Shown: positions 4,959 to 54,387 of the stretch, one piece after another | Layout of the letters: each line of letters opens with the position of its first letter | How positions within the stretch are numbered: the stretch's first letter is position 1 | Origin: Nitrospira sp. BO4 | Lineage (GTDB): Bacteria > Nitrospirota > Nitrospiria > Nitrospirales > Nitrospiraceae | Direction: 5' to 3' | DNA length: 64,000 nucleotides | NCBI GenBank assembly: GCA_030144965.1 | Contig: JAMPUU010000021.1 | Location: 1 to 64,000, forward strand | Position numbers and translations under genes: made by a program | The notes under the pieces: generated by a model | Database searches by the model: none | What the model saw: only the letters and a program-made list of their open reading frames with translations | Told to the model about the DNA's origin: nothing

Positions 4959-5013
4959 TGAAATGGTGAGCCGGCTGGGACTCGAACCCAGGGCCCTCGC
5001 CTTAAAAGGGCGA
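4959..5013 (-). repeat. attL: partial tRNA-Lys copy, 55-bp direct repeat
   Basis: The same 55 bases occur at 54333-54387. They include the T-arm, variable loop, the 3' side of the anticodon arm and the anticodon, but the D-arm and 5' acceptor strand are absent here, so this copy is not a functional tRNA. Identity stops abruptly after the GGGCGA of the anticodon stem. Confidence 0.9.
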
Positions 5014-20321: not shown

Positions 20322-20433
20322 GACACGGGAGTGTAGCCGCAGTCTGTGCGATTACAAGGCCTGACCCTATCTGTGGTCACATTTGGGTGAATGGTTAGTC
20401 GCCATGACTGCTACAGATGGACCAGCGGATCTT

Positions 20434-20631
20434 TCACTGTCTTTCGATTCTCAAGCCACCGCCATAGGGATTGGCGGGGCTATCAGAGAGCGAAAGGGAC
20501 TGCCGCACCGTAAGGATTGCTGATGGAGTCCGGCGAAAACGGAGAGCCATTCCGGCCGTGCTGAGGGGTTGACGCTCAACTTGCCCGAGAGGAGAGACAG
20601 GAGCATCGGACCCTCCTGCAAAAAGGATCAT
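20434..20631 (-). pseudogene. Decayed copy of the NPFG-repeat secreted protein C-terminus
   Basis: Read leftward, SDSPANPYGGGLRIERQ matches the C-terminus of the intact protein at 35349-35780 (SDSPINPYGQGWRIEGK), and the DNA upstream in this stretch also parallels that gene (TGGAGTCCGGCGAAAACGGA against TGGAGTCCGGAGAAAAGGGA). The remaining translation is out of phase. It is a broken paralogue. The 160 bases from here to the end of the RecB-like gene hold nothing I can assign. Confidence 0.55.
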
Positions 20632-20795: not shown

Positions 20796-21965
20796 TCAAG
20801 AAATGGAGAATGTCCCCCCTTTTTCTGTTTCGCTCGCAGGCACAATGGCGGGCAACCCGTCGACGCGTGCCAACACCGTCAGGGGCGTCGGCACAAGGCT
20901 CCCATCTGGGCGCCTTCGGAGCCCGACGAGCCGAACGCGGTCGCCCCTAGAAACTGCCGTCACCTCTGGGTGGATGTTGGGATTCAGCGGCGCGAGCTGC
21001 ACACGTTTCCTTTCCTCGCTTCCGTTTTGAACATTGACAGTCAACGACGTGGCAGCTCCCCCGTGAATAGCGCGCGGTGGTTCATCGAGCACTCCATCGA
21101 CAACTGCCCCATCAAGCTTGCCAGACCAATCGGGGCTCACTGCGGACCAAAGTGGCGTACACACTAGCTTGAACGAGCACCACTTGCACGTCGTCGCCGA
21201 TGGATCAGCCAGTTGCTCCGGCAATGCGCGGGCAGTAATATTGGAGTTGTAGTCGTCGAGAACCGCGACCGCTTCAACGGCTTCGCGCATGCACTCTTTC
21301 GGCTCCAGTGGCACTTCGACACCGGCACCCGCAAAGGGTAACAGCACCCCGCGCGTAGGCCACCATCCAAGCACCTCTTTCACGAGGAAACCGTAGATCC
21401 GGAGCTGCCGGACATAGGCAGCCTTCACAACATCAGACTGGGAGCTTTCGTCATATTCAAAGATCGCGCCGCTCTTATAGTCGACGACCTCCCTGTGTCG
21501 GATGAGATCCGGCCTCCCGACGAGCTTTCCACCAACAGCCACGAACTGACGTTCTCGAATGGTGCCAGCGTCACCTGACCCGGTTGCACCCAATGCTGTT
21601 CCACCCGCCGAGACTTCGCGTGCCCGCAGGAGAGCACTCGCTCGAACGAGATGATAGCCTGGCCACGTTTCCGGCGAACCGAATCGTCGATTAAGCTGAT
21701 GGGCGGCGGCGCGCTGGTGTTGCGCGTCGACCGCTCTGTCCCAGAATTGCACCGCGGCTGCTTCGACATCGACTATCGACTCCAGGCAGGCGAACTTCTC
21801 GAGCACCTCGTGATACGCGGTGCCTAGCCACGCTTTTGGATTCCCAAGCACGTAGCCTGCGCTCCCGGTAGCACGCAAGAGCCCGGCGCGGAGTCGGCAC
21901 GCCCGCATCGTCTCCGCCAGAGTTGGACTCGTCGACGGGATGACGGGAAGTACCAGCTGGCTCAC
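20796..21965 (-). CDS. RecB/Cas4-like PD-(D/E)XK nuclease with Fe-S cysteines
   Basis: A 389-residue protein, last gene of the five-gene operon. The start is a GTG two bases after the stop of the DUF1998 helicase, with CGGAGG upstream; longer open frame to the right is shadow of the helicase gene. Motifs: GTAYHEVLEKF (about residues 60-70, the RecB H), KLVGRPDLIRHREVVDYKSG (about 148-167, D...DYK) and CKWCSFKLVC (about 258-267), which with another cysteine would ligate 4Fe-4S as in Cas4/AddB nucleases. The C-terminal about 100 residues look beta-rich (SRGDRVRLVGLRR), perhaps an OB-type nucleic-acid-binding domain. It likely supplies DNA cleavage to the complex. I know of no such gene in the defined Druantia gene sets. 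Confidence 0.75.
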   Translation of the reverse strand: MSQLVLPVIPSTSPTLAETMRACRLRAGLLRATGSAGYVLGNPKAWLGTAYHEVLEKFACLESIVDVEAAAVQFWDRAVDAQHQRAAAHQLNRRFGSPETWPGYHLVRASALLRAREVSAGGTALGATGSGDAGTIRERQFVAVGGKLVGRPDLIRHREVVDYKSGAIFEYDESSQSDVVKAAYVRQLRIYGFLVKEVLGWWPTRGVLLPFAGAGVEVPLEPKECMREAVEAVAVLDDYNSNITARALPEQLADPSATTCKWCSFKLVCTPLWSAVSPDWSGKLDGAVVDGVLDEPPRAIHGGAATSLTVNVQNGSEERKRVQLAPLNPNIHPEVTAVSRGDRVRLVGLRRRPDGSLVPTPLTVLARVDGLPAIVPASETEKGGTFSIS

Positions 21966-21967
21966 GA

Positions 21968-24900
21968 CTAAAATGGCCTCCGGAGCACCTCGAAGATAGA
22001 CTTCATGGTGACCTGGCAACCCGCCGCCACCGCTTGCGCGTAAGCGGCTGCGAGCTGTGGGCCGACGAAGTTGGGATCCGTGTTCCAGAGCGGATGAGTG
22101 ACGATCTCGACCTGGTTTCCACGCCGTCCCGCCTGGAGGCCACCGAACAGGACCGGCTGCCAGCCAGGCATCGCGGCGAAGTAAGGGCCTGCGGCCGCCG
22201 CGTCGAGGCCCTGCCAGTAGGGGACGGAGAAATCGATCGGCGCCGCTGGATCGAGCGCCAAGCGCGCGAGATCCAGACCCAGCCGCCAATCGAGAATGTT
22301 GTGGTACGCGAGGTTGCTGAAGTCGCGGAGGCAGTCCGGGCAGGATGTCCTGCACAGCGATCCGTGCAACGGGTTCCCCTGCGGATCCTGTTGAGCGACG
22401 AGTGGGCCATAGAATGTGTTGCTGGTCTGTCCCACAATGAAGCGCAGCAGGCTCTCGGCCTCGGCGGGCGTCCCGAAGTACGAGCTGTACCCGGCGCCGT
22501 TCTCCAGGCTGTCCGAGATGAAGATCTGGCCGATGACCTGCCCGTTCGGATCCTGCATCACCCGCAGGCCGACCTTCAGCTCGCGTTCATGAATGTCGAG
22601 TCGAACAGCAGCGGCTCGACGGAGCAGGAACCCGAGCGAGTAGAGTCCAGCCCGACCCTCAACCCGAAGCGGTACGGCGTTGACGCCTACTGGCCAGGTC
22701 TGGATTCCAAGGACAAGAACGTCCGTCGGCTTTACGGAAGCGAGCGCGCGTCGGTCTGGGGCACCTCCCGGAGCAAGAGGTGGATTGTTCACGTCGACCT
22801 TCGCGAGCGCGTCACGCGTCACCCAAGTCTCGCCCTGCGCGAGCTTCTCGAAGTCGAACAGCTGGCCCTCATTGTCGTTGATCACGTAGACGGTGTCTTG
22901 ACCACTCCAGATCTCCAAGTTCGCGACGGGCGTCATCCCGATCGGCATTACGCCCACCTTTGGGCGCGACGCGCGAGCGGTCCACTCGAACACGCCGTCG
23001 AAGTCGCGACTTGCGCCGAACCAGGTGCGGAACCCCCGCGGCTGCGAGAGCACCACCTGTTCGTAGTCCGGCGGTGCCGCTCCGCAGACCGGACACGTCT
23101 GAGCGGGGTTCTGAGATCCGTCTACCGCCTGGCATCGCCGGCAGAGTCCGATCGGCAGCGGTGGGCCGAGCGGGTTTGGTTGCTCCACAACCGCGTTTCC
23201 CTGCGGCTGATAGTCGACGACGCCGACCGCCGTGTGGATGACGCCGTCCTTCACCGTCTCCGATGACGGAGCAAACTGGCTGATCGCGATGTCGAGTTCG
23301 CGATCGACGACCCCATCGGGTGGCCACTCGTAGGCTCCTCCCGGCCTCTCATGGAAAAGGTAGCGAACTCGCGTCGGGAATCCGAACATCGGCAGCACTC
23401 CGACGTTCGCGAGGCGCTCGCTCAACGACCTCTGTGGCAAGCGGGGATCGACGGAGGCCGCGGTCACTCGCGGAACGAGTTGCGTTTGGACGTAGGTGAT
23501 CAGCGCCGCCCTTTGGGCCTGCAGTTGCGGCGTCGTGAACGAAAGCAGCACGTCGCACGTGTGCGCGATGGCAGCTTGATTGTTTTGGATCCAGTCATCG
23601 ACCAGCTGCGCGACCGTCAGGCCCGGCGGTGTGCCGGGTGGCGGCTGAGCAGGCGCAGTGCCCCAGTCAGCTGCGTCTCCGAATTCGCCGTGCACGCTGT
23701 CGCCGCCCTGCGCTGCGAATAGACCCAGCGCCGCGAAGGCTTGCCGCAGGACCTCCTTCGCGAGCACGCGCTGGAGAATCGCCTCCCGGCGCATGTCCAC
23801 GTATGGCTGCGGCGGAGGATCCGACGTGATCCGATCTGGCCGCTGGAAGTAGTAGTCATCATGGCTTCGCCCGCGGCACAGCGTGAGCGCGACCGACAGA
23901 CCGGCTCCTCGCCGTCCCGCGCGACCAACGCGCTGCTGGTAGTTGAAGCGCATCGGCGGCATGTTCGCCATCATGACGGCGAGCAAGGAGCCGATATCCA
24001 CACCGGCCTCCATCGTCGTTGTAACGCTGAGGAGATCAATCGGATCGGTGACCTGAATCTCGTCAGGGGGAGGGAGGCAGATGTCCTGGAAGAGTCGCTG
24101 GCGCTTGCGGCCGTCGTTCTTGTTCGTCTGCCCGGTAAGCTCCTCGCAGTTGAGCCGAAACAGAGGCCCTGCGTGTGTCGCCAAGTAGCTGTAGTAGTCG
24201 CGCGTGGCTTGGGCAGCCGCCAGGGGCTGCGGCGGGCCAAGGGGAATGTGGCAATCCGTGCAGACGCCTCCCGCCGCGTGCAGGTGGACCCGGCGGCATT
24301 GACCGCATTCGAAGTATGCTGTTCCCGGCCGCGCGAGGCACAAATTCTGGGCGACAAGGACGTGCTGTGTAAGCACACTCGCGCTGTTGAGATAGTTCAG
24401 CACGTCGGCGGCGAAAGTTGACGGTGTGAAGCCATGCAGCTGCGCGACCGCGGCCAGGTACTGAGCGACGTAGGCGGGAGGATTCGGTTGGCTGGCGGCT
24501 CCGTGTGTCGAGAGCCGGCGCCGCGCACCGAGCAACCGAATAGTTCCATCGGCGGCCTCTTGAACAAGGGCGCTTAGCGCTGGCATGGCGATGCGATCGG
24601 TAGTTGCGAATGCGAGCCGCAGTGACTCGAGGCTGCGGCGGCCTGAAGCGAAGACGACATCCATCACTTCCTGCAGCGATTGGTCCTGAATCCTCCGGAG
24701 GTGATCGCGCTGCTGCTGGCTGAGCTGCGCAGCCGGTCTCGCTTGCGGAATGGTTCCGGCCACGCCCCAGGTGTAGAGATCTCGCCAGCTGCCTTCCCTT
24801 GTTCGCGGAGCAGTCCAGAGAACATCCTGGGTGAAGCCGCCGGGATTCACTCCGTTGGCGAGTAGCTGCGCTGAGGCGTCGGCCGAGAGCTGGCCGATGT

Positions 24901-27529
24901 GAAACGGCCCCTGGGCAGCCCGAGCCAGAATCTGTTGTGCTGCTGCCTGGGAGGTGATGCCTGGGTGCGAGGGCGACGGCAGCTGCGCGGTTGCTGCGTT
25001 GGCTGCCATCGAGAGGGAAGCTGCCTCGGCCGGGTGTGTTACGCTAAAGGCGGTGGCGAGCGCCTGTTGCTGTGGGGACACTGGCTGTCCGCCAATTTGA
25101 GACGCGAAGGCTTGCGCGCCCGCTCCCTGGACGGCGATCGCACCGGTGATCGCTTGGCGGAGCGCATCTCGATAGTGTGAGAAACGCATGCCTGCCGAGA
25201 GTTTCGCGGCATCTTGTCGGCTATCGGAGAACACCACGAGCTTTCGCGACTGGCTGGCGGTGGCGGGCGCGATGTTTCGGAGAAGGGCATCCGAAAGCAC
25301 CTGCGCGATCTTCTGGAAGCCGGTGCGAAGAGTGCGAACGGGTGACCCGATCTGGCGCCGAGACCAGTCAGCGTCACATCGAGGGCAGCGCGCTGGATAC
25401 GCCTGCCGCGCGATGTCCCCCGCGGGTGGAGCCGGCGAGTGCATCGCCGGCACGTAGTAAAGGTACCCGGGCCCGCCGAGCGCGACCTTGCCGTCCGCCG
25501 ACGTGAAACGCGCGGCTCGCCACGCTCTGGGAACTCCATCTTGAGTCCACTGGGGTGACGCTGGCGTCACTCCAGGTGCTCCGGGCCAATACACGGCATA
25601 TCGGAGGTAGTCGCGATCCATCGAGGCCATGTCTGGGGACGCCTCAAGATCCGGATGGTCGGGGCTGAGGTACCACTCATTGGGATTCAACCCCGTGTCT
25701 CGCCGGTAGCCGCCGAAGAAGATATCGCCGCAGGCTTCGCAGTAGAGCAGCTCAAGCACGCGCGAGCCGCAACCGCAGGTGAGCGTCGGGACGTAGTGCA
25801 GCGCCCCGGCGGGAGGTGCGCCGTTGCGAGGCGGGACCTGCGTACACCCCGGGTTCGTGCATGCCCACAGCCCCTGCAGGTTGCGGTAGATGATGTGCGC
25901 GCGAACAGGGAGAGGGGCTGTGCCGCTCGCGCCTCTGGCTGCAGACAGGCCGGCGAGAAGACCTTCCACCGCTTCGATGCCGTCGGGAAGCGGAAGACCG
26001 GGGTACATCACGGACGCGATCTGCTCGGGGAATCTCGGCTCCAACTGGGGAGCGCTCGCGGGCCCCGCTGCACATGCCAAGCGTAGTGCGTCATCCGCCA
26101 TCACGTGGGCGAGGGCGGAGTCGAGTGTCAACTCCGGGCTCGCTCCGGCTGGCGCCGCAGGCGCGCCGGTTGCGTTCTGAAATGCCGTCGCAGCAGTCGC
26201 AGTCAGCGACGGCGACGCACGCAGATCATTACGCAGCTGGCGCAGCGCTGCCACGCTCGCGCGTACGGGGCCGAACGCACCAGGGTTGACCGGCTGTGTC
26301 GCTGCACCGACGATCCGAAACCGATTGCGATCGCGCCCGAAGAACGACTCGAGGTACTGAAGGCCCGCCGCGCCACTGGCTATTGACGCGCTCGAAGCGA
26401 TGATGCGCAGCTGATTCGAGTCCGGCGCTAGACCGATGCGGTCGAGGAGCACGCGAACGAGATACGCGACCTCGGTGCCGGGGGTTCCGCGATAGGTGTG
26501 CAGCTCATCGACGACGAGATGGAAGATGTGCGAAGGATCTTGCTGGAGCCACTGCCTCGTCTGATCGAAAACCTGCGCCTCGACGCTGCGCATCAGCATG
26601 ATGTTCAGCATCGAGTAGTTCGTGATCATGACGTCCGGGGGGTGGTCCTGCATATCCCAGCGCGACCACATCTCACCGCCGTCCATGGCCGCGAAGAACC
26701 GTGCCGCAGGGGTTCCTGCAACGAGCTGGGAGTCTCGATGCGCATCAGCCAGCTCGGCGCGCAACCTGCCGGTCGCTGCCGACGTACGGCTCCCCGACAC
26801 CGGCGTTCGCCCTGTGTAGCGCCCAAAGTAGATCCGATTCGCTGCACGGTGCGCTTGGAGCCACGCTCGGGCACCCGCGCCATCAAGGGCGTCACGCAGA
26901 CGCGCGAGCTGGTCCTCGACGAGCGCGTTGAGCGGGTAGAGGATGAGCGCCCTGACCGCGGGCGTCCGGTTCTCATGCGCTCGCTGCGGAAGGCGGGGAT
27001 CCCAGCGCCGCCGGCTTCCTTGCATGGACCAGTGATTCCACCAGTCCCACTGCGCGGGTCGCAGCCCGGGCGCCGGCCAGGTCACCGACTCCCGAGCGAG
27101 TTCGGCGGCAATCGGAAGCAGAAAGCACTCGGTCTTGCCCGACCCGGTTCCCGTTGTCACCACGACATCGTGGCCGTGGACGACCGACTCCTCGAACACG
27201 GCACGCTGGTGCGTGTACAGTTCGCGCGGCTGCCCGTTCGGAAGGGTCGGAGGAAAGAGCCCCTGCGAAACGAACGCGGACAAGTCCGTGACGACGGGCT
27301 GAGGCCAGACCGGCCCGAGGAGAGCCTGCGCCGCTTGTGAGAACGTTTGGCCAGAGAGCTGATATGCCGGGACGGGCTCGATGAGTGGGCGCCGGTATAG
27401 CCTCCCATCCGCGTCGAGCAGCGCACGCCGTTCGGCGACGAGGTCCGGGTATCTGAGATCAAACGGACTGTCGAGATACCGGAAGTAGGTGTCTCGGAGA
27501 TCTTCGAAGATGGCGAGCGGGTTACTCAT
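21968..27529 (-). CDS. Giant DUF1998 helicase, DruE-like
   Basis: An 1853-residue protein. The ATG at 27529 overlaps the previous stop (ATGA) and has AGGAG upstream; the open frame upstream is shadow. Motifs: Walker A VTTGTGSGKTECFLLP (about residue 126), Walker B VVDELHTYRG (about 340), LVVFSDSRQDAAKLSAG (about 765), TTTMEAGVDIGSL, and motif VI QQRVGRAGRRGAG (about 1203). Zinc-type cysteine clusters occur near 560-600 (CTNPGC, CGCG, CEACGD) and 1130-1150. The C-terminal DUF1998/MZB signature is CRTSCPDCLRDFSN (about 1725). Size, architecture and linkage to a cytosine methylase match DruE, the hallmark of Druantia antiphage systems; DrmA/DrmB of DISARM are the alternative relatives. Very rich in G+C at third positions, hence many long antisense frames. 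Confidence 0.8.
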   Translation of the reverse strand: MSNPLAIFEDLRDTYFRYLDSPFDLRYPDLVAERRALLDADGRLYRRPLIEPVPAYQLSGQTFSQAAQALLGPVWPQPVVTDLSAFVSQGLFPPTLPNGQPRELYTHQRAVFEESVVHGHDVVVTTGTGSGKTECFLLPIAAELARESVTWPAPGLRPAQWDWWNHWSMQGSRRRWDPRLPQRAHENRTPAVRALILYPLNALVEDQLARLRDALDGAGARAWLQAHRAANRIYFGRYTGRTPVSGSRTSAATGRLRAELADAHRDSQLVAGTPAARFFAAMDGGEMWSRWDMQDHPPDVMITNYSMLNIMLMRSVEAQVFDQTRQWLQQDPSHIFHLVVDELHTYRGTPGTEVAYLVRVLLDRIGLAPDSNQLRIIASSASIASGAAGLQYLESFFGRDRNRFRIVGAATQPVNPGAFGPVRASVAALRQLRNDLRASPSLTATAATAFQNATGAPAAPAGASPELTLDSALAHVMADDALRLACAAGPASAPQLEPRFPEQIASVMYPGLPLPDGIEAVEGLLAGLSAARGASGTAPLPVRAHIIYRNLQGLWACTNPGCTQVPPRNGAPPAGALHYVPTLTCGCGSRVLELLYCEACGDIFFGGYRRDTGLNPNEWYLSPDHPDLEASPDMASMDRDYLRYAVYWPGAPGVTPASPQWTQDGVPRAWRAARFTSADGKVALGGPGYLYYVPAMHSPAPPAGDIARQAYPARCPRCDADWSRRQIGSPVRTLRTGFQKIAQVLSDALLRNIAPATASQSRKLVVFSDSRQDAAKLSAGMRFSHYRDALRQAITGAIAVQGAGAQAFASQIGGQPVSPQQQALATAFSVTHPAEAASLSMAANAATAQLPSPSHPGITSQAAAQQILARAAQGPFHIGQLSADASAQLLANGVNPGGFTQDVLWTAPRTREGSWRDLYTWGVAGTIPQARPAAQLSQQQRDHLRRIQDQSLQEVMDVVFASGRRSLESLRLAFATTDRIAMPALSALVQEAADGTIRLLGARRRLSTHGAASQPNPPAYVAQYLAAVAQLHGFTPSTFAADVLNYLNSASVLTQHVLVAQNLCLARPGTAYFECGQCRRVHLHAAGGVCTDCHIPLGPPQPLAAAQATRDYYSYLATHAGPLFRLNCEELTGQTNKNDGRKRQRLFQDICLPPPDEIQVTDPIDLLSVTTTMEAGVDIGSLLAVMMANMPPMRFNYQQRVGRAGRRGAGLSVALTLCRGRSHDDYYFQRPDRITSDPPPQPYVDMRREAILQRVLAKEVLRQAFAALGLFAAQGGDSVHGEFGDAADWGTAPAQPPPGTPPGLTVAQLVDDWIQNNQAAIAHTCDVLLSFTTPQLQAQRAALITYVQTQLVPRVTAASVDPRLPQRSLSERLANVGVLPMFGFPTRVRYLFHERPGGAYEWPPDGVVDRELDIAISQFAPSSETVKDGVIHTAVGVVDYQPQGNAVVEQPNPLGPPLPIGLCRRCQAVDGSQNPAQTCPVCGAAPPDYEQVVLSQPRGFRTWFGASRDFDGVFEWTARASRPKVGVMPIGMTPVANLEIWSGQDTVYVINDNEGQLFDFEKLAQGETWVTRDALAKVDVNNPPLAPGGAPDRRALASVKPTDVLVLGIQTWPVGVNAVPLRVEGRAGLYSLGFLLRRAAAVRLDIHERELKVGLRVMQDPNGQVIGQIFISDSLENGAGYSSYFGTPAEAESLLRFIVGQTSNTFYGPLVAQQDPQGNPLHGSLCRTSCPDCLRDFSNLAYHNILDWRLGLDLARLALDPAAPIDFSVPYWQGLDAAAAGPYFAAMPGWQPVLFGGLQAGRRGNQVEIVTHPLWNTDPNFVGPQLAAAYAQAVAAGCQVTMKSIFEVLRRPF

Positions 27530-28485
27530 CGGAGCTCCTGGCGGAGAAGTGCCGCCGCAATCGCGGCGATGTCCTGCGGAATCTCGGGGTACTGGAGAGA
27601 GCCGCCTCGTAGGCCGCTGCCCTCGTACGAAGGTGGCGATCCCGAGCACAAGATCAGGGCTCGCTCTACCAAGAATGGCGGGCGGCAGCTTGCCGGCATT
27701 GAGAGCGTTCGGTCTTGGGCATCGTACCGGAGCACCTGGCGCCGGCGCTGGCGCAGAACGAGGTACTTGCCAACCTGTGCGGGGATTCGTGCTGCAGCGC
27801 CCCTGCAGCAGAAGAGCACATGGCGCTGGTGCCGGAGAGCGAAGCGAAATAGACCGGCCGGGGCAGTGCGAGCATCGTCCAGCGTTGCCGAGCGCCAGAC
27901 GAGGTCGTCGGCGGAGAACCGATCGATTCTCCAGTCTGAACCGAAGGGCAGCTCGGTTTGGTAGCGCACCCTTGGGTCGTCCACCGGTGGGAGGCTCGCA
28001 AGAAGTGCTGCTGGCGCGTCATCTTGCAAGAGAAATCCGGCCCCCTCTGCGACGGCGGTTAGCGTGTCCCGTGTGTTGGCGGCAATCAGGATCTGGTCGG
28101 GATACGAAGCGAACTCGACGACCCGGAGTTCTGCTCCATGAGTAGCGGCGGCTGAACGCAGGCGATCGGTGAGCGTGACCGATCTCGCTCCGGCTACGAC
28201 GCCGAGCCAGCCACGCGCATGTCGCGTGACCGCCAGGGACGGAGGCGTGACTCGCCACTCCGCTCCCTCGCCGGCACCGGCAAGGAACTCGGCGTGCCCA
28301 ACCCGTTGCAGGTTGAACCTAAGCGTCTGGTAGAGAGGCAGGGCAAACTGATCAGGCGCGTCGTCGCCTTCTCCCTCGATTTCGGTGTCCGCTGTTAGGT
28401 GAAGCTCCTCGACGGCAGCGCGGAACTGAGCCCATGAACCGTAGCGCCGTGCGGACATCCAGAGGAGAAGAGCGTTCGCGCTCAT
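27526..28485 (-). CDS. Unknown component of the DruE-like operon
   Basis: A 319-residue protein with no recognised domain. The start MSANALLLWMSARRYGSWAQ at 28485 overlaps the preceding stop (CGATGA), and its own stop overlaps the helicase start the same way, so it is translationally coupled on both sides. The frame could open 16 codons earlier but that lies inside the preceding gene. The start (helix with RRYGSW..FR.AVEEL) and a C-terminal proline-rich stretch are the only features. By position it corresponds to one of the two small unknown subunits (DruF/DruG) in Druantia type II; I cannot confirm homology. Confidence 0.65.
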   Translation of the reverse strand: MSANALLLWMSARRYGSWAQFRAAVEELHLTADTEIEGEGDDAPDQFALPLYQTLRFNLQRVGHAEFLAGAGEGAEWRVTPPSLAVTRHARGWLGVVAGARSVTLTDRLRSAAATHGAELRVVEFASYPDQILIAANTRDTLTAVAEGAGFLLQDDAPAALLASLPPVDDPRVRYQTELPFGSDWRIDRFSADDLVWRSATLDDARTAPAGLFRFALRHQRHVLFCCRGAAARIPAQVGKYLVLRQRRRQVLRYDAQDRTLSMPASCRPPFLVERALILCSGSPPSYEGSGLRGGSLQYPEIPQDIAAIAAALLRQELR

Positions 28486-30659
28486 CGCCAGCTTCTCCGG
28501 AGTGTCTTTGCGTAGCGCTTGTAGCTCTTCCACAGGGCTGCAATCTCCACCCGCGAGGGCACGGCCTGCAGTCCCTTCCTACTTGCCTCGAGGATGGCCT
28601 CGCACCACGCGTGAGTCGCCCGGGTCAGATCACGGCGCCTAACGGCGCACCCGCTGCGGTGCGTAGCGGACGTCTGGTCGGCTCGATTGACCGCCGCCGG
28701 TGGTCCGATCAGAAGTACGCGCGCCGCGCGCTTGTCGCAGTGAAGAGCGTCAGCCGGGACAGCCCAGATGGGGTGGAACCAGGGAAAGCCAACACAGAAT
28801 CCCGCGCGGACGTCCTTGCGAGGCGTGCAGACCTCAATCTCGCCTGGTCTCGCTCCAAGCAAGATTGGATTCGTAGCCACAACCACTATCGGGCAGCTGT
28901 CGGCTCGTGCGTCACGCGGCGGGCGAACAAGCACACCACAGATCGCGGGTCGCGACTGTGTACCACTGGCCGTTGGTTCGCCGAGTGACCAAGAGTAGGC
29001 ATCCCACGGATCCCATGCCTCGGCCCCGCTGCGAATCGCGTATGCGCGCGTGGCGCTCGTGCACCAAACGGTGTGCTCACCAGCAGAGTCCCAACCAGGG
29101 GCAACATATCCCCCTTCGGGGGATCGCGTGGCCTTCTGTCCGTCGATGGTGACAACCCCGAGCATGCTCGTTTCGCCGAGAAGCTCAATGGTGGGCGGAA
29201 AACTGCTTAGCCACGTCTGGCGGTCAATCCGGATTCCTCCAGTTAACGCGATCTCAATATCTGGAAGCGGCCTGAGCGCGTCCATGATGTCGCCGTCTGG
29301 GCTTGGCGCAACCGGGTGCTGGGGACGCACGCCGCGCAGGCCAACCCAACCAGCCGGAATACCGCTGTCAGCGTGCAGCTCTGTCGGTTCGGGACTTTTG
29401 GTGAGCGCGATCGCCGCACGTACATCTGGCAGACGCTCAGCGACACAGAAGACGACATGCTCCTCGCCAATGACCAGGCGCGGTCTACTGACGAAGCCAT
29501 TTAGTTCGCCATGGCGAGCCAACACGAAAATGCCTCGACCGCTAAGGGACAGCCGAGCAGCGCCGCCATCGGGAAGTGCACCAACCCACTCGATCCCCTC
29601 CCTGAGCAGGCGCCCCATGTCGGGCCGCATCACGTCCTGGTACCACTCATCCTGGAGCGCCTCAAGCTCGAGAGGAGAGCCTGAGCCTCCCACTACGAAC
29701 TCGGTCGGCATCCCGACAGCGCGGCGTGGCAGGAGCGAAACCCGGCAGAAGCCCGCCTTCTCAAACACAAGACGTAGCTCGATCGGCGTCGCGCGATTGC
29801 GCGCATCTCGCCCCGGACTCGGCGATCCAAGTGGACGGTGCGGCGCGGGCTTACGTGCCGTCGCACGGTATTGTCTCGGAGCTCTTGGTGCAGGCAGAGG
29901 CGGCGCCACTCGTGCAGCCACCACGGCCCCGTCCCGAGCTTGTGTCACTTCAAGAAGGACATCCGGCTGGGCCGTAGTGCGTGTCTGCTCCTCAACTCGC
30001 CTGCGTAGGTTTTGCTCCTGAAGCTGCGTTTCTTGCGCCACCGCCGTGCGTGATTCCTCTTCAGCGAGGCGGCGCGTCTCTTCGAACTCACGCCGTAGAG
30101 CCTCCCGCTGCGCCGCAGCACGTGTTACTTCATCGAATTGCCGACGTGCCTCTTCAGCTTCGCGCTCGGCCGCCGCGCGCGATTCTTCTGCGGATAGTTG
30201 GCGTGCTTCCTCTGCCTGACGCTGTGCCTCGTGCTTCGCCGTGGCGCTCGCTTTATCTTTGCGATGCGACTCCACTTGTGACCCGCTTAGGAAATCTGGT
30301 TCTATAGCATTTGAGGCATTTTCCTCACTCCGGCCTCCCTCCTCCTCATCCGTGGCCTGCGATGGGGTTGTGATTGATATCTGCTTCCGCAGACCTTGCT
30401 CGGGGTGGGTCGTTATTTCTTTAATGGGCGCTGCTGCCTCTTCTGGCCCCGTCTGCGTTAGGTGTGGCTCCAATCCTATATCGCCATTGACAATCGGTGC
30501 TTTACCAGATAATGGCCCCCTCTCTGCTGACCCCTTCTCTGGTCGATGGGAGTTATTCTCCTGACGAGAAGCTGGACGTTTTTTGAAGAGCCAAGTAGCA
30601 GCCGCAGCGACAAATATTATCGTGAGAGCTGCGAGTAGATTATTGAAGCCACCGCCCAT
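28482..30659 (-). CDS. Membrane-anchored coiled-coil protein of the DruE-like operon
   Basis: A 725-residue protein. Residues about 5-25 (NNLLAALTIIFVAAAATWLF) form one transmembrane segment followed by basic KKR, so the bulk is cytoplasmic. Residues about 130-235 are a long heptad-like, Glu/Arg/Ala-rich coiled coil (repeats of EEARR...EESR.AAEREA). A proline- and arginine-rich hinge follows to about 290, then a folded C-terminal domain of about 430 residues with no family I recognise. It lies 39 bases after the methylase gene and overlaps the next gene by 4 bases. By size and order it could match DruG or DruF. It suggests that the system is tethered to the membrane, which is inference. Confidence 0.7.
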   Translation of the reverse strand: MGGGFNNLLAALTIIFVAAAATWLFKKRPASRQENNSHRPEKGSAERGPLSGKAPIVNGDIGLEPHLTQTGPEEAAAPIKEITTHPEQGLRKQISITTPSQATDEEEGGRSEENASNAIEPDFLSGSQVESHRKDKASATAKHEAQRQAEEARQLSAEESRAAAEREAEEARRQFDEVTRAAAQREALRREFEETRRLAEEESRTAVAQETQLQEQNLRRRVEEQTRTTAQPDVLLEVTQARDGAVVAARVAPPLPAPRAPRQYRATARKPAPHRPLGSPSPGRDARNRATPIELRLVFEKAGFCRVSLLPRRAVGMPTEFVVGGSGSPLELEALQDEWYQDVMRPDMGRLLREGIEWVGALPDGGAARLSLSGRGIFVLARHGELNGFVSRPRLVIGEEHVVFCVAERLPDVRAAIALTKSPEPTELHADSGIPAGWVGLRGVRPQHPVAPSPDGDIMDALRPLPDIEIALTGGIRIDRQTWLSSFPPTIELLGETSMLGVVTIDGQKATRSPEGGYVAPGWDSAGEHTVWCTSATRAYAIRSGAEAWDPWDAYSWSLGEPTASGTQSRPAICGVLVRPPRDARADSCPIVVVATNPILLGARPGEIEVCTPRKDVRAGFCVGFPWFHPIWAVPADALHCDKRAARVLLIGPPAAVNRADQTSATHRSGCAVRRRDLTRATHAWCEAILEASRKGLQAVPSRVEIAALWKSYKRYAKTLRRSWR

Positions 30660-30698
30660 AGGTGTGATCTTTTATTCAAGCCAGTATTGCTTCTTTGC

Positions 30699-32357
30699 TC
30701 ACAAGTGCAGCTTACTCTCCGACTTTGATTGCCACAGAGCGCATCCTGTCCGGATCGGACAACTGGCGCATTCTGGTTGTCGGGCCTTGCAGTTCGCTGC
30801 ACACACATCGAGTATGGCCAGATTAAATTCTCGTGACCGCTTTGCCGGAATAAGCGCATCAGCGATTTGTTGGAGACGGCGATCACGGGCGGGATTATTG
30901 GACGGGCGGTACTTCAGGCCGAAATATCGAACGAGAAATCGGGCAACATTGGTGTCTATGACTGCAAATGGCTGGTCAAAAGCGAAGCTTAGTGTGGCCC
31001 GAGCTGCATAGTGGCCTACCCCAGGTAATGCCAGCAAGGCCTGAAAACATTGGGGAACATTGCCTTTGTGATACCGAACGATGGCACGTGCGAGTTTGAT
31101 AAGTTCGCCTGCGCGATACGTTAAGCCCAGCGGAGTTACGATTTGCTTAAGTTCGCGCCGCGATGCGGTCGCGAGCGCATTCCAGTTCGGATAGCGGCTC
31201 ATGATCTGCCGGAATGCGTCAACCACGACGCCCGTTGCAGCAGTTTGTTGGAGAAGCTTTTCTGCAACCAAGATCCGGAAGGGATCTCGAGTCTGGCGCC
31301 AGGGGAACGGCCGCTGGTTATTTTCGAACCAGCAGAGGAGGAAACGCTGCAGTTCTTCTACCGGAGCGTAAACCGATTGTCTGATGGCATTAGCCACGGC
31401 GGCAGCTAAAGGAGGTGGTACTGCGTTGGAAATTTGAGTTACTTGATCACTCAATGACCCATGAAGGACGTAGCGTTTAGGAAACCCTTGAAGAAGCATC
31501 GCCTCTAGTATGGTGAGGCGACGTCTACCAGCCGGATGAATGTGAATTTCCCGATTCCCGTAAGCAACTGTAAAGCTCGGCTTGTTCCAGCGAAGCCTCT
31601 TGAATGAACGTCCGTTTCCGTGCATTCCGTTCTTGAACTTTGGCGAGCGGGGGACCATGGTCCAGTGGTTTGGATGATACGGAATATCCTCCGGCTTTAG
31701 ATTCCTGTGATAGAAAGCGGCCGGAGGCAAATCACGAATTACGTCCCCTACTGTTGGTGGCTCCGTTCCCCCTTTCGGAAACTGGAACTGCACCCAAGGA
31801 TACTTGTACCGATTCACTCCAACTATTAGTATTCTGCGGCGTCTTTGCGGGACCCCAAATTCCCCAGCATCAAGATTAGCGACAAAAAGATTGAACCCTG
31901 CTCGCTTCAGTTCTCTCTGGATACTTTGAAACCAGTGTGTATGACGCTCGGTGAGCAGCCCCAGGACATTTTCAAATACAACAAAGTCGAGGTCGAATTC
32001 CCTGTTAAGTTCATTAATTTGTCTGGCAAAGATTACCCCAAGACGTGATCGCGGGTCACGACGCTTTAATGATCTATTGCTGGATGAAAAACTTTGGCAC
32101 GGTGGCCCTCCAATGATACCTCGTGGTACTAGTTCAGCAGAAGCCTTTCGTACCATCTCGACCAACTCAGAACCTGATAACTTGCTCAAATCGCATTGCA
32201 CAGCGACTTTGGCTGGATCGTTCTGGTTATAGGTCTCAACGGCCGCTCTGTTGTCGTCTAGTGCCAGCATAGGCAAAAACCCACACTGACGAAAACCAAG
32301 ATCCATCCCCCCAGGTCCGGAGAACATACTGATTATTGGAAGTCTATTTTCGATCAT
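30699..32357 (-). CDS. C5-cytosine DNA methyltransferase fused to a MIG/MutY-type DNA glycosylase
   Basis: A 552-residue fusion. Residues 1 to about 330 are a C5-MTase: motif I MFSGPGGMDLGF, IV GGPPCQSFS (catalytic Cys about 85), VI FVVFENVLGLL (about 128), VIII VPQRRRRILIVG (about 170), IX RRRLTILEAMLLQGFP (about 285) and X QISNAVPPPLAAAVANAI (about 310). Residues about 345-552 are an HhH-GPD glycosylase: FPWRQTRDPF, AEKLLQQTAAT, LPGVGHYAARATLSFA (about 442), VIDTNVARFLVRYFG with the catalytic Asp, and the 4Fe-4S loop C-X6-C-X2-C-X5-C (about 522-540). The residue after VGH is Tyr, as in thymine-DNA mismatch glycosylase MIG, not Ser (MutY) or Lys (EndoIII). First gene of the operon; the methylase corresponds to DruM of Druantia II. 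Confidence 0.88.
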   Translation of the reverse strand: MIENRLPIISMFSGPGGMDLGFRQCGFLPMLALDDNRAAVETYNQNDPAKVAVQCDLSKLSGSELVEMVRKASAELVPRGIIGGPPCQSFSSSNRSLKRRDPRSRLGVIFARQINELNREFDLDFVVFENVLGLLTERHTHWFQSIQRELKRAGFNLFVANLDAGEFGVPQRRRRILIVGVNRYKYPWVQFQFPKGGTEPPTVGDVIRDLPPAAFYHRNLKPEDIPYHPNHWTMVPRSPKFKNGMHGNGRSFKRLRWNKPSFTVAYGNREIHIHPAGRRRLTILEAMLLQGFPKRYVLHGSLSDQVTQISNAVPPPLAAAVANAIRQSVYAPVEELQRFLLCWFENNQRPFPWRQTRDPFRILVAEKLLQQTAATGVVVDAFRQIMSRYPNWNALATASRRELKQIVTPLGLTYRAGELIKLARAIVRYHKGNVPQCFQALLALPGVGHYAARATLSFAFDQPFAVIDTNVARFLVRYFGLKYRPSNNPARDRRLQQIADALIPAKRSREFNLAILDVCAANCKARQPECASCPIRTGCALWQSKSESKLHL

Positions 32358-35325: not shown

Positions 35326-35348
35326 TGGACCTCCGATGTGATGTGTTT

Positions 35349-35780
35349 TCATTTGCCTTCGATTCTCCATCCTTGCCCATAGGGGTTGATCGGTGAATCG
35401 GATCGGAACGGGCTCCCTGCGCCGAATTGATTGTTCATGGAGTCCGGAGAAAAGGGAGACCCGTACCGGCCAAATGGATTACTGGTTGAATCCTGATCGA
35501 ATGGGTTGGCGCTCAGCTTGCCGCGGTAATTGCCTTGCTGGTCGTAGAGTCTGGGTGCGTCGGTGGCGAAAGGATTCGTTGCCGACTTGTTGCTGAAGGG
35601 GCTGCCATAGGGACTGAAGGAATTGTTGATGCCGTTCGGTGCGAAGGGACTCCCGGCACCAAACGGGTTCGCCGTGGACTCATGCAGAAACGGATTCGCG
35701 CTCAGATTGCCGAGATCCTCGGCGCAAGCCAGGTTTGCCGCCAATACCAGTGCCTGAAACAGAATCACCGCGAGTGTCAT
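35349..35780 (-). CDS. Secreted protein with NPF/NPFG repeats
   Basis: A 143-residue protein. It begins with a signal peptide (MTLAVILFQALVLAANLACA) behind GGAGGTGGCT, which places the start at 35780 rather than the GTG two codons upstream. The mature part is a chain of degenerate repeats such as SANPF, STANPFGAGSPF, YGSPFSPDSMNNQFG and SPINPYGQGW, with one LYDQQGNYRGKL insert. I recall similar short proteins in Nitrospira and Proteobacteria, without a function. A decayed copy lies at 20434-20631. Confidence 0.7.
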   Translation of the reverse strand: MTLAVILFQALVLAANLACAEDLGNLSANPFLHESTANPFGAGSPFAPNGINNSFSPYGSPFSNKSATNPFATDAPRLYDQQGNYRGKLSANPFDQDSTSNPFGRYGSPFSPDSMNNQFGAGSPFRSDSPINPYGQGWRIEGK

Positions 35781-35940: not shown

Positions 35941-36924
35941 TCACTGCGTCAGGAGCTTTCTCGCTTCCTCTTTGACGGCGTGCTTGAGATGTTCTGGCTT
36001 CAGGACTTGAACGCCACTGCCGAAGCTCAAAATCCAGCCCAGGAGTTCACGCGTGTCGGCCACCTGGAGCGTCATCAGGAGTTGCCCGCTCTTGAGCTTC
36101 GTCGTTTGCTGGCTCGGATGCCAGACGCGGTCCTTTGCCCAAGCCGCCGTGGCTTTGTCGAACTTCAATTCGACCGTGATTCGCTCCCCGCGCATGACGA
36201 CGAGCGCGTCTTCCACATAGGCGTCGATGTCGAAGTGTAGTGGCATTTGATAGGGATGGTCCGTGGGCGTCAGTGACTTGATCCGTTCCACCGCAAACAT
36301 CCGCACGTCCTTGCGCAGATGGCAGTAGGCGATCAGATAGAGCCCTCCGTCCACATAACGCAAGCGATAAGGATCAACCTCCCGTCGAGTGCTTGCATTC
36401 CTACCAGCCGAGAAATACCGCATTTGGACGGTATGGCGGTGAGCAATGGCCTGAGACAGCCTATCGATCGTCTCCCGATGGTGACGGTAGTGCTTATGCG
36501 GCCCCAGGCCGACTGAGAACCATTGGTCTAATCGCTGGACATAATCAGACGCTTCGGACGGAATGGCCGCATTGATCTTCGTGAGTGCGGAGTTGAGGGA
36601 GGCCGCGATCAGTGTGCCCTCCAGTGGGGTGAGCAACTGGCGGCTAAAGGCGAGCGCCATCAATTCGGTGGGAGACAGACGCAGACCTGGGACATTCCGA
36701 AATCCATCCAGCAAGCGCCAGCGGACCTCGCCATGGACGCGCTCGGTGAGCAGAGGGAAATGGGAAGCTTCCAAGGCGGCGAGATCGCGCCGGACGGTGC
36801 GGGGATGCCGGCTCAATTCTTCGGGGATGGCCTCCACGAGCTGCGTCAGCGTCAGCCCGTTCCGAGCCGCACCGAGCCGCTGCAACAGATGCCATTGACG
36901 GGTAACTTGATCGTTGCGCGGCAT
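35941..36924 (-). CDS. WYL-domain transcriptional regulator (YafY/DeoR type)
   Basis: A 327-residue regulator with an N-terminal DeoR-like HTH (RQWHLLQRLGAARNGLTLTQ, then SRHPRTVRRDLAALE, residues about 8-55), a central WYL domain (HRHTVQMRYFSAGRN, REVDPYRLRYVDGGLYLIAY, about 155-205) and a C-terminal WCX region (VADTRELLGWILSFGSGVQV). WYL proteins bind ligands such as nucleic acids and are often encoded beside defence genes. Its target is unknown; a position between the secreted proteins and the integrase module gives no clear partner. Confidence 0.85.
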   Translation of the reverse strand: MPRNDQVTRQWHLLQRLGAARNGLTLTQLVEAIPEELSRHPRTVRRDLAALEASHFPLLTERVHGEVRWRLLDGFRNVPGLRLSPTELMALAFSRQLLTPLEGTLIAASLNSALTKINAAIPSEASDYVQRLDQWFSVGLGPHKHYRHHRETIDRLSQAIAHRHTVQMRYFSAGRNASTRREVDPYRLRYVDGGLYLIAYCHLRKDVRMFAVERIKSLTPTDHPYQMPLHFDIDAYVEDALVVMRGERITVELKFDKATAAWAKDRVWHPSQQTTKLKSGQLLMTLQVADTRELLGWILSFGSGVQVLKPEHLKHAVKEEARKLLTQ

Positions 36925-38134: not shown

Positions 38135-38986
38135 ATGGACATGCAGGCGGTCTGGTGGAAGCCTCGAGATGTGTTTATTAGCGACACAACTTTTCATCCC
38201 CGTCCTCCGTTCGAACCATACAATCCCTTCGTGCATTACCACCCGCACACCCTCAAGCAGACGACACGGTCTACAAAATCGCTCTACTACCAGTTCCTTC
38301 AAGTAGACCCTGAAGATCAAAAGGCCATTGCTAAATTCTGCTGTGACTATGGAATGCTGGGTCGTCTCGATAATGCTGGTTGGATCATGTGGGGGATGGA
38401 GAAACCCGGATTCGCTGACTCTCTCCATATTATGGGCTTGAACGAGCCATCACCGTTTGGACTCCTTTATGAACAAGATATGAGAGGAACAATGCTCCGC
38501 CAGATTGCGGGAATTCCCCCGGACCCATCACTCTGTATACCCATGGAATGGGACGATTTCAGGAAGGTACAAGGTCAGCTTCGCGAGGCTACAGAGTGGG
38601 CATCGACCATGGCGAGCAAGCGAAAACCTAAGGAGAAGGGAAAAGCTCAAACAGCCCTCCACCAGAGATTGCGCTGGAAACTATCAATGGTACGCCCCAA
38701 TGTCTCGAGGGATAACAAGAAGGCAAAATGGCGCTTTACCTGGGACATTGGTTCACTCGAGGCAGCCTTCTACCTGATGCTGCTCTCGGACGTATGTGGT
38801 GGCGGTCAGATACGTAACTGCGAGTTATGCGGAACGTTTTTTCTAGGCATTACCAGTCGCGGGCGGTTCTGCTCAAATCGCTGCCTCAATACATTTAAAG
38901 TTCGGCGTTTCAGAGCCAAGCGTAAACAACGCATGTCAAAACAACCTGCCAGTAAGGAGGTGCTCGATGGCTCGTCAGGACGGTAG
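38135..38986 (+). CDS. Zinc-finger hypothetical protein coupled to integrase
   Basis: A 283-residue protein whose C-terminus has a CGNR-like zinc motif: NCELCGTFFLGITSRGRFCS followed by NRCLNTFKVRRFRAKRK (about residues 227-263), i.e. two CxxC/CxxxC pairs and a basic tail. This is typical of DUF/CGNR proteins that bind nucleic acid. The N-terminal 200 residues are unassigned. It overlaps the integrase gene by 20 bases, so the two are co-expressed. Confidence 0.65.
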   Translation: MDMQAVWWKPRDVFISDTTFHPRPPFEPYNPFVHYHPHTLKQTTRSTKSLYYQFLQVDPEDQKAIAKFCCDYGMLGRLDNAGWIMWGMEKPGFADSLHIMGLNEPSPFGLLYEQDMRGTMLRQIAGIPPDPSLCIPMEWDDFRKVQGQLREATEWASTMASKRKPKEKGKAQTALHQRLRWKLSMVRPNVSRDNKKAKWRFTWDIGSLEAAFYLMLLSDVCGGGQIRNCELCGTFFLGITSRGRFCSNRCLNTFKVRRFRAKRKQRMSKQPASKEVLDGSSGR

Positions 38987-40088
38987 AGATCGTGGCGTGG
39001 TTTTCAAGAATGGGACTTGGTGGGTCCGTTTCTATAACGAAGGCAAGGAAGTCTGGCGGAAATGCGACAACAAGTCTCAGGCGCGCAGCCTCTACGGCAA
39101 ATTCAAAGCGCAAATCCGGGAAGAGAAATACTTTCCGAAGGCTAAGAAACGCGAGCCGCTGTTATTCAAGGCTGTCGGGAAAGACTATGAGGCATCACTA
39201 AACAGGGATGGGCGTCGTCCTGGTGATAACCACGCCAGGATTGAGTTTTGGGTCGATCGATTCGGCAAACTGGATATCGAGGCCATTACGACATCCCAGA
39301 TTGAGCAAGCCTTGTCGCATCTGCGGGCTCCGCTCATCGAGCGATCCGGCCGGCTGGCAAAGGGGACTAAACGGTCGATCGAGACGGCTCGTCGATATTA
39401 TGTCGTGCTCCATGCCATTCTGGAGAGAGCCAGGAAGCGATTGAAGGAAGAGAAAGTCCTCATGATCAACCCCGCCTCAGACATTATGTTGAAAAAGGCG
39501 GATAACACATTGGTCCGGTATCTGACACCAGACCAGAAACAAGCCCTGTTCGATGCTCTGCCCGCCCGATATCATCCCATCGTACTGACCGCCCTCAATA
39601 CAGGTATGCGCCGTGGAGAGCTTTTACGTTTGACCTGGGCTGATGTGGATTGGTTCGCCGGGACGATCAAGATCCGCCAAACGAAAACCGATGAACCGCG
39701 CCACGCCCCCATGAACAGCGTGGTGCAACGAGAATTGCTGGCGCTCAAGAATAAGACAAACCCCTCCCTATCCGACCCGGTGTTTCCCTTTTACCCTCGG
39801 TATCTTAGTCGGGCCTTTCAACGCGCCGTTATCAAAGCACAGCTTGCGCCGTTCAGATTCCATGACTTGAGGCACTGTTTTGCCAGCAGTCTCGCGAGGC
39901 TAGGTGCCAACGATAGGACTCTTATGGAAGCCGGTGGATGGGCATCCCCTGCCATGCTGAAACGCTACGTCCACCTTGGACCCTCTACTGTTTGGCAGGC
40001 AGTGGAGAAGCTGGCTGAATTATCACCCTTGAATAAGAACGATAATAAGCTGTTTCTCAAGGAAGAAGAGGTAAAGTTAAACCAATGA
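38967..40088 (+). CDS. Tyrosine recombinase / integrase
   Basis: A 373-residue phage-type integrase. It has an N-terminal arm-binding-like region (VFKNGTWWVRFYNEGKEVWR), a core-binding SAM-like domain (about 60-170) and a catalytic domain with R in TALNTGMRRGELLRLTW (about 215), K in IKIRQTKTDEPR (about 238), HxLRH as FHDLRHCFASSL (about 295-306), H/W in MEAGGWAS and the nucleophile in LKRYVHL (about 332). GGAGG is well placed before the ATG. It is the only intact integrase in the island, but lies about 34 kb from the left att and 14 kb from the right, with no visible att repeat beside it. Confidence 0.9.
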   Translation: MARQDGRDRGVVFKNGTWWVRFYNEGKEVWRKCDNKSQARSLYGKFKAQIREEKYFPKAKKREPLLFKAVGKDYEASLNRDGRRPGDNHARIEFWVDRFGKLDIEAITTSQIEQALSHLRAPLIERSGRLAKGTKRSIETARRYYVVLHAILERARKRLKEEKVLMINPASDIMLKKADNTLVRYLTPDQKQALFDALPARYHPIVLTALNTGMRRGELLRLTWADVDWFAGTIKIRQTKTDEPRHAPMNSVVQRELLALKNKTNPSLSDPVFPFYPRYLSRAFQRAVIKAQLAPFRFHDLRHCFASSLARLGANDRTLMEAGGWASPAMLKRYVHLGPSTVWQAVEKLAELSPLNKNDNKLFLKEEEVKLNQ

Positions 40089-54332: not shown

Positions 54333-54387
54333 TGAAATGGTGAGCCGGCTGGGACTCGAACCCAGGGCCCTCGCCTTAAAAGGGCGA
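54333..54387 (-). repeat. attR: 55-bp direct repeat within tRNA-Lys
   Basis: Identical to 4959-5013. It runs from five bases beyond the encoded CCA to the anticodon stem of the intact tRNA gene. Confidence 0.9.

What the first reader, a model, noticed from the sequence alone, without database searches (positions are those of the whole stretch)
20796..32357. Five-gene Druantia-II-like operon with an added RecB-like nuclease
Gene order is cytosine methylase-glycosylase, membrane coiled-coil protein, 319-residue unknown, 1853-residue DUF1998 helicase, RecB/Cas4-like nuclease. Spacings are 39 bp, then 4-bp overlap, 4-bp overlap and 2 bp. Druantia type II is known as druM (cytosine methylase), druF, druG and druE; a giant DUF1998 helicase is its hallmark. 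The extra Fe-S nuclease and the glycosylase fusion are not part of the defined set, as far as I know. This may be a new subtype with an explicit effector nuclease and self-DNA marking by methylation.
Basis: partly seen in the sequence, partly recalled or inferred. Interest (0 to 1): 0.85.

Follow-up and report, generated by a model that had tools for sequence, protein, structure and literature searches.

The report
Druantia-IV operon with methylase-repair fusion
A five-gene bacterial anti-virus operon of the Druantia family marks its own DNA with a methylase fused to an enzyme that probably repairs the mutations this marking causes, and comparison with near-identical relatives shows that the marking and cutting genes at both ends have been exchanged around a constant motor, as in restriction-modification systems.

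Summary
The five genes, coordinates and spacings are real. PADLOC profiles assign them as DruM, DruF, DruL4, DruE4 and DruK. This is therefore closest to Druantia type IV (DruE+DruF+DruL; PMC8565338), not type II. The nuclease is DruK, which is already in PADLOC-DB. What departs from the published type IV description is the DruM gene, and DruM is fused to a glycosylase. That glycosylase carries the diagnostic residues of the T:G mismatch glycosylase Mig.MthI (PMC2714593).

Unreported as far as I could find: methylase plus HhH-GPD glycosylase recurs beside this core in many phyla. They are fused twice independently, in opposite domain orders. The operon is a mosaic. DruL-DruE are 94-97% identical to a Steroidobacteraceae system, yet methylase (28%), glycosylase (30%), DruF N-terminus (37%) and DruK (57%) belong elsewhere. 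Identity breaks within about 10 bp of the druE stop codon.

The best reading is modification-guided restriction with exchangeable specificity/effector modules and built-in repair of deaminated 5-methylcytosine. Function is inferred, not shown. The operon lies in a 49-kb tRNA-Lys integrative island.

The parts
30699..32357 (-). druM-mig fusion (P0004, 552 aa): residues 1-330 C5 cytosine methyltransferase (motifs FSGPGG, GGPPCQ with Cys87, ENV, QRR, SNAV); residues 335-552 HhH-GPD glycosylase with C523-X6-C530-X2-C533-X5-C539 Fe-S motif
28482..30659 (-). druF (P0003, 725 aa): N-terminal transmembrane segment, variable charged/coiled-coil-like region, conserved beta-rich C-terminal half (residues 290-725)
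27526..28485 (-). druL (P0002, 319 aa): DruL4, related to the C-terminal part of type II DruF; AlphaFold model pLDDT 92
21968..27529 (-). druE (P0001, 1853 aa): YprA-family SF2 helicase, DruE4; Walker A GTGSGKT, DELH, RVGRAGRRG, several conserved CxxC pairs; C-terminal 90 residues show no conserved nuclease motif
20796..21965 (-). druK (P0005, 389 aa, GTG start): RecB/Cas4-type PD-(D/E)XK nuclease with conserved H52, D153, DYK164, Q187xxxY191 and C23/C260/C263/C269
21968..28400 (-). druL-druE block that is about 93-95% identical in DNA to a Steroidobacteraceae system (L047); identity falls sharply at its druE end
4959..5013 (.). att-like 55-bp direct repeat (distal copy) of the tRNA-Lys 3' end: outer border of the integrative island that carries the operon
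54333..54387 (.). att-like 55-bp direct repeat (proximal copy) inside tRNA-Lys(ttt) 54338-54413
38967..40088 (+). tyrosine recombinase (Phage_integrase PF00589, E 1.2e-27), presumed integrase of the island

Best explanation
This is a DNA-targeting anti-phage system with a Druantia type IV core (DruF-DruL-DruE) that works as modification-guided restriction. Step 1 (inferred): DruM methylates a cytosine in a specific sequence and so marks host DNA; its fused Mig-type glycosylase removes the thymine from T:G mismatches that arise when the 5-methylcytosine deaminates, so the system repairs the mutational damage of its own marking. Step 2 (inferred): membrane-anchored DruF and DruL hold and regulate DruE, which loads on incoming unmodified or replicating DNA and translocates using ATP. 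Step 3 (inferred): DruE shows no conserved nuclease motif of its own, so DruK (RecB/Cas4-like, Fe-S) cuts the DNA that DruE unwinds. Shown here: gene content; intact catalytic motifs in methylase, glycosylase, helicase and nuclease; recurrence of the core across phyla; recurrent pairing of methylase with HhH-GPD glycosylase; and phylogenetic exchange of the methylase-glycosylase and DruK modules around the DruL-DruE core. Such exchange is expected if those ends carry the specificity/effector functions of a restriction-modification-like system.
For: Identity: PADLOC DruE4 1731 bits, DruL4 5e-25, DruF4 5e-4 (its C-terminal half alone hits DruF2 at 5e-7; 28 of 35 members of that alignment hit DruF2), DruK 5e-29, DruM2 9e-78. 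Glycosylase: the best solved relative is 1kea, Mig.MthI (5e-37); residues F351, R354, A374, Y450 and L513 align with the Mig residues, where E. coli MutY has L22, Q25, V45, S120 and Q182 (PMC2714593); the genome has separate MutY- and EndoIII-like genes elsewhere. Functional link of methylase and glycosylase: a glycosylase lies near DruE in 18 of 62 scorable loci, 15 of them also scored with a methylase, by at least 5 changes on the DruE tree; fusion is methylase-glycosylase here but glycosylase-methylase in L064 and L085. Rough background: 6 of 757 plasmid and 0 of 523 phage records with a methylase match cover both domains. Mosaic: DruE 97% and DruL 94% to L047, but M 28%, G 30%, K 57%; among L047, L011, L032 and L026 themselves M is 71-91%, G 70-89%, K 59-87%. 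The DruE tree puts window+L047 at 100 SH-aLRT; the AU test rejects that pair for M (p 4e-96) and K (p 0.002). DNA identity drops from 92-100% to 56-60% within about 10 bp of the druE stop. Nuclease: RecB/Cas4 motifs and four Cys are conserved in 27 DruK rows.
Against: No methylation, repair, nuclease or phage-protection assay exists for this operon, and I found no experiment on any type IV system. DruK is detected in only 32 of 75 scorable loci and a methylase near 46 of 68, so neither is obligatory for the core. Presence of methylase and glycosylase could not be shown to co-vary beyond phylogeny (7 independent pairs, sign test p about 1). The DruF match is weak by profile. Defence islands recombine freely, so exchange alone does not prove that DruM and DruK are specificity partners. 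Mig diagnostic residues are not sufficient: MutY mutants given some of them do not excise thymine (PMC2714593).
Confidence: 0.6

Rival explanations
1. The glycosylase is not a repair partner but part of the attack: a base-excision effector that removes bases from invading DNA, leaving abasic sites that DruE/DruK turn into breaks.
For: Base-excision restriction enzymes are known (PMC10273834). Close relatives carry glycosylases with the lysine of bifunctional glycosylase/AP-lyases (L047, L011, L040, L064, L085). PADLOC groups the domain with 'Type II nicking endonuclease' (PDLC03398, 1e-37).
Against: The window domain has the Mig-type Tyr450/Ala374/Leu513 set typical of a mismatch glycosylase. 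It follows the methylase (fused or adjacent) and is exchanged together with it rather than staying with DruE or DruK. Many loci with a methylase lack it, which fits an auxiliary repair role better than an essential effector.
Confidence: 0.15
2. The mosaic carries no functional message: homologous recombination in the conserved druL-druE block simply joined two unrelated flanks, and DruM and DruK are passengers or independently acquired accessory genes.
For: Defence genes in integrative islands recombine often. DruK and the methylase are each absent from many related loci, and DruK state changes at least 15 times on the DruE tree.
Against: The exchanged ends are again a methylase-glycosylase at one end and a DruK at the other, with tight operon spacing kept. 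In the closest sister clade (L011, L026, L032, L047) M, G and K all stay together. Methylase and glycosylase are fused twice in opposite orders.
Confidence: 0.2
3. It is a DNA-repair rather than defence operon: a YprA/MrfA-like helicase with a RecB-like nuclease and a mismatch glycosylase.
For: YprA-family helicases include repair members (MrfAB), and glycosylase plus nuclease plus helicase would also suit repair. P0001 matches YprA itself at 2e-12.
Against: The helicase is in the DruE4 family (1731 bits); Druantia helicases fall in the defence branch of the family in PMC12458937. The operon lies in an integrative island with another defence-like cluster, is found in 1 of 79 genomes of the genus by DruL and is spread horizontally between phyla at 88-97% identity.
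Confidence: 0.05

Closest known systems
Druantia type IV (PADLOC; PMC8565338)
   Same: DruE4, DruL4 and DruF in the same order; wide patchy distribution over phyla; DruK profiles exist in PADLOC-DB v2
   Different: Type IV was described as lacking DruM; here DruM is present and fused to a Mig-type glycosylase. DruK is not mentioned in the 2021 paper and I found no paper on it.
Druantia type II (DruM-DruF-DruG-DruE)
   Same: Cytosine methylase, DruF, giant helicase; the methylase domain hits DruM2, DruE hits DruE2 at 1581 bits
   Different: DruE fits type IV better. DruF here is split into DruF + DruL (DruL aligns to DruF2 residues 751-1010 of 1011). No DruG match; a DruK nuclease instead.
Mig.MthI T:G mismatch glycosylase (PDB 1kea)
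   Same: HhH-GPD family by sequence, Fe-S cysteines, catalytic Asp, Tyr126/Ala50/Leu187 counterparts; works on products of 5mC deamination
   Different: Fused to the methylase in one polypeptide and placed in a Druantia operon; Arg47 is Gln here
Druantia type III DruE (PMC13192584; probably PDB 9tu7) and a solved 1970-aa helicase, PDB 9wae
   Same: YprA-family SF2 helicase core; 9wae is the closest solved sequence (2e-178)
   Different: Type III DruE carries its own C-terminal PLD nuclease and works with DruH; here no nuclease motif is conserved in DruE and DruK is encoded separately
Cas4/AddB-type RecB-family Fe-S nucleases
   Same: GxxxH, GxxD, DYK, QxxxY and C...CxxCx5C pattern
   Different: Best family match is DruK, not Cas4; no CRISPR or AddA partner in the operon

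Membership tests
Druantia type IV (PADLOC) | DruE of the type IV family | tested here: met
   PDLC00051 DruE4 E=0, 1731 bits, residues 2-1852; next DruE2 1581 bits
Druantia type IV (PADLOC) | DruL | tested here: met
   PDLC00057 DruL4 5.4e-25 over residues 1-318
Druantia type IV (PADLOC) | DruF | tested here: met
   Weak: DruF4 5e-4 full length, 1e-4 C-terminal half; DruF2 5e-7; relatives at the same position reach 1.7e-13 for DruF4
Druantia type IV (PADLOC) | No DruM and no DruG (as described in PMC8565338) | tested here: not met
   A DruM-like methylase is the first gene (DruM2 8.7e-78); no DruG match among the five proteins. 46 of 68 scorable relatives also have a methylase nearby, so this feature may not be a sound definition
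Druantia type II | Single long DruF (~1000 aa) plus DruG | tested here: not met
   DruF and DruL are separate genes; no DruG match in the five proteins
Druantia type II | DruM cytosine methylase | tested here: met
   DruM2 8.7e-78, though generic type II methylases score nearly as well (7.5e-73)
Mig-type T:G mismatch glycosylase | HhH-GPD with catalytic Asp, Fe-S cluster and Mig residues Tyr126, Ala50, Leu187 | tested here: met
   D468, Y450, A374, L513, C523/C530/C533/C539 (PMC2714593)
Mig-type T:G mismatch glycosylase | T:G glycosylase activity | not testable with these tools
   needs purified protein
DruK / RecB-Cas4 Fe-S nuclease | PD-(D/E)XK catalytic set and four cysteines | tested here: met
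   H52, D153, K164, Q187, Y191, C23, C260, C263, C269 invariant in 27 rows; position 162 is mostly D or E; all 27 match the DruK profile
DISARM | DrmA/DrmB with DUF1998 as a separate protein, DrmC PLD nuclease | tested here: not met
   DrmA only 35 bits; no PLD nuclease in the operon
Anti-phage defence system | Protection from phage | not testable with these tools
   no experiment on type IV found in the library searched

The most novel reading that the evidence does not exclude
Druantia type IV systems with DruM are genuine modification-restriction systems built like exchangeable cassettes. A fixed DruL-DruE motor accepts different methylase-glycosylase heads and DruK (or other nuclease) tails, which change specificity by recombination at gene borders. 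They also carry their own dedicated 5-methylcytosine deamination repair enzyme, a combination I found reported for no Druantia system.
Probability: 0.4. Interest if true: 0.7.

Novelty: new variant of a known kind. Interest (0 to 1): 0.5.

Why it matters
Druantia types with a methylase are uncharacterised mechanistically: what tells self from foreign and what cuts is open. The mosaic gives natural chimeras that make this testable, because near-identical DruL-DruE cores come with different methylases and nucleases. A methylase fused to a mismatch glycosylase would also be a compact solution to a known cost of 5mC-based immunity, mutagenic deamination.

Tried and rejected
(1) DISARM/BREX/Dpd membership: only weak helicase matches. 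(2) DruL fold: Foldseek and VIA-align gave only weak hits (an N-terminal winged-helix-like match, PerR Z 7.1; ACT-like matches at residues 79-155), within the noise stated by the tool. (3) DruF C-terminal fold: confident model (pLDDT 88), no PDB match at E 1e-3. (4) Rate variation as the cause of the low DruK identity: L047 and L011 share 87% DruK at 89% DruE, whereas window and L047 share 57% DruK at 97% DruE, and the AU test rejects the pairing. (5) The glycosylase as a displaced housekeeping MutY: the genome has its own MutY- and EndoIII-like genes and the domain lacks the MutY C-terminal domain. (6) A co-variation test of methylase and glycosylase presence on the tree lacked power. (7) A single replacement nuclease in loci without DruK: no common family; one HNH (L022), one GHKL ATPase (L024), several unrelated genes. 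(8) DruK or type IV mechanism in the literature: nothing found.
Full report
Observation. No frame is broken. The nuclease starts at a GTG two bases after the druE stop; conservation among relatives begins within its first several codons, which supports that start.

Identity of the genes. PADLOC profiles give DruE4 (E=0, 1731 bits, ahead of DruE2 at 1581), DruL4 (5e-25), DruF4 (5e-4), DruK (5e-29) and DruM2/type II cytosine methylase (9e-78). DruF is the weakest. Its conserved half alone hits DruF2 at 5e-7, and of 35 proteins from the same operon position 28 hit one DruF2 profile and 20 hit one DruF4 profile. DruL also aligns with residues 751-1010 of the 1011-residue type II DruF profile, so type IV DruF+DruL looks like type II DruF in two genes. 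Druantia type IV was defined as DruE+DruF+DruL without DruM and DruG (PMC8565338). The operon therefore has the type IV core but breaks the 'no DruM' statement. DruK is not in that paper's text, but profiles of that name sit beside the type IV profiles in PADLOC-DB v2; I could not read the PADLOC system file, so whether DruK counts as a type IV component there is an inference from numbering.

Catalytic motifs. The methylase has FSGPGG (12), GGPPCQ (83, Cys87), ENV (129), QRR (171) and SNAV (310). DruE keeps Walker A GTGSGKT (127-133), DELH (341-344) and the 1200-1207 arginine motif, nearly invariant in 79 sequences; its last 90 residues keep little beyond HPxW and RRP, no nuclease motif. This fits the statement that type I and II DruE end in an inactivated Vsr-like domain (PMC12458937). 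DruK has the RecB-family set H52, D153, D162-x-K164, Q187xxxY191 and cysteines 23, 260, 263, 269; all are invariant in 27 sequences except position 162, which is mostly D or E.

The glycosylase. The closest solved structure is 1kea, the T:G mismatch glycosylase Mig.MthI (5e-37), ahead of MutY (2e-34). In PMC2714593 the residues separating Mig from MutY are A50/V45, L187/Q182 and Y126/S120, with F27/L22 and an Arg at MutY Q25 lining the thymine methyl pocket. The window domain has A374, L513, Y450, F351 and R354 at these places; only Mig R47 is Gln. It ends at the Fe-S motif and lacks the MutY C-terminal domain. The genome carries MutY-like and EndoIII-like genes elsewhere. T:G mismatch repair after deamination of 5mC is therefore the most likely role. 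This is inferred, since these residues are not sufficient in MutY.

Recurrence. A scan of 84,980 species genomes with the helicase kept 80 loci from Pseudomonadota, Planctomycetota, Acidobacteriota, Gemmatimonadota, Cyanobacteriota, Bacillota, Chloroflexota, Poribacteria, archaea and others. F-L-E is nearly universal; DruK was found in 32 of 75 scorable loci, a C5 methylase near 46 of 68, an HhH-GPD glycosylase near 18 of 62. Glycosylases are of two active-site kinds: tyrosine (window, L071, L087, L090, L060) and lysine (L026, L032, L047, L040, L064, L085 and others). L064 and L085 are also fused, with the glycosylase in front of the methylase, the reverse of the window. Two independent fusions in opposite order are classical evidence of a functional link. 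As a rough background, only 6 of 757 plasmid records and 0 of 523 phage records with a methylase match cover most of both domains; on a Thermus and a haloarchaeal plasmid the two are neighbours, not fused.

The mosaic. The DruE tree joins the window with L047 (Steroidobacteraceae MAG, 97%) at 100 SH-aLRT inside a clade with L032, L026 and L011, hosts from different phyla. These four have methylases 71-91%, glycosylases 70-89% and DruK 59-87% identical to each other. The window has 27-29%, 27-30% and 54-58%. Its methylase is instead nearest to those in L023, L090, L087, L071 and L013, three of which sit beside Tyr-type glycosylase genes. The AU test rejects window+L047 for the methylase (p 4e-96) and for DruK (p 0.002). 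At DNA level: about 46% (random-like) over the methylase-side end of druF, 81% over the rest of druF, 93% over druL, 95% over druE, 55% over druK, with the drop within about 10 bp of the druE stop codon. Direction is open: either the ends were replaced, or a druL-druE block moved into another system. Either way the ends and the core have separate histories.

Mechanism. The best reading is modification-guided restriction: DruM marks self, the Mig domain repairs the mark's deamination, DruF anchors at the membrane (hydrophobic N-terminus also in many relatives of this branch), DruE is the DNA motor and DruK the nuclease. A recent review also lists Druantia among systems governed by DNA methylation (PMC12904381). 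Type III DruE prefers 3'-tailed DNA and carries its own PLD nuclease (PMC13192584), a helicase-nuclease logic that DruK may restore in trans here. None of these steps is shown for type IV. DruL and DruF folds gave no safe match.

Setting. The operon is in a 49.4-kb island bounded by a perfect 55-bp repeat of the tRNA-Lys 3' end (4959-5013 and 54333-54387) with a tyrosine recombinase at 38967-40088. A same-species genome lacks DruE4 and DruL4; it has the outer flanks at 98-99% identity with about 55 kb of other DNA between them, and further copies of the tRNA-Lys end nearby, so this is an integration hot spot. Within 79 genomes of the genus only this one has DruL.

Verdict. A real Druantia-family operon, best described as a type IV-core variant with a DruM-Mig fusion and DruK. 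The claim that the nuclease makes it a new subtype fails; the fusion and the modular exchange are the new parts.

Noticed in passing
window 4959-54387: 49.4-kb integrative island at tRNA-Lys(ttt) with a 55-bp perfect direct repeat at both ends and a tyrosine recombinase at 38967-40088; a same-species genome (G123) carries other DNA and further tRNA-Lys-end copies at the same hot spot.
   Followed up: partly
window 12719-19650: Four co-directional genes: two unknown proteins (466 and 386 aa), a PLD-domain protein (577 aa) and a helicase (822 aa), the last two weakly like ZacB/ZacC and PDC-M27B/C: a second, divergent candidate defence system in the island.
   Followed up: partly
window 5820-12069: Overlapping pair of a 1018-aa protein with C-terminal PD-(D/E)XK nuclease and a 1066-aa UvrD/AddA-like helicase, near one end of the island.
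   Followed up: partly
window 40501-51273: Very large proteins (1446, 1228, 636 aa), two of them with PPFPPFPPYPP and poly-serine stretches, and an 87% direct duplication (48690-49146 and 49382-49835); function not looked into.
   Followed up: no
window 20432-20557 and 35347-35471: A 72% identical direct repeat flanks the stretch holding the Druantia operon and its upstream genes; similar sequence occurs once near druE in G093 and on contig C2 of G123.
   Followed up: partly
window 35941-36924: WYL/WCX-domain regulator on the same strand as the operon, about 3.6 kb upstream; such regulators often accompany defence genes.
   Followed up: no
L064 15790-17565 and L085 11480-13399: Glycosylase-methylase fusions in the opposite domain order to the window, with a lysine-type active site, next to DruL-DruE.
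   Followed up: partly
L022 15519-16613; L024 15572-17479: After druE, an HNH_2 endonuclease (L022) or a GHKL-type ATPase (L024) stands where DruK would be: possible alternative 3' modules.
   Followed up: partly
L047 15580-16902; L013 15460-16504; L008 6316-12202: Decayed copies: DruK appears cut short in L047 and broken in L013; druE is split into two frames in a same-genus genome (G093).
   Followed up: partly
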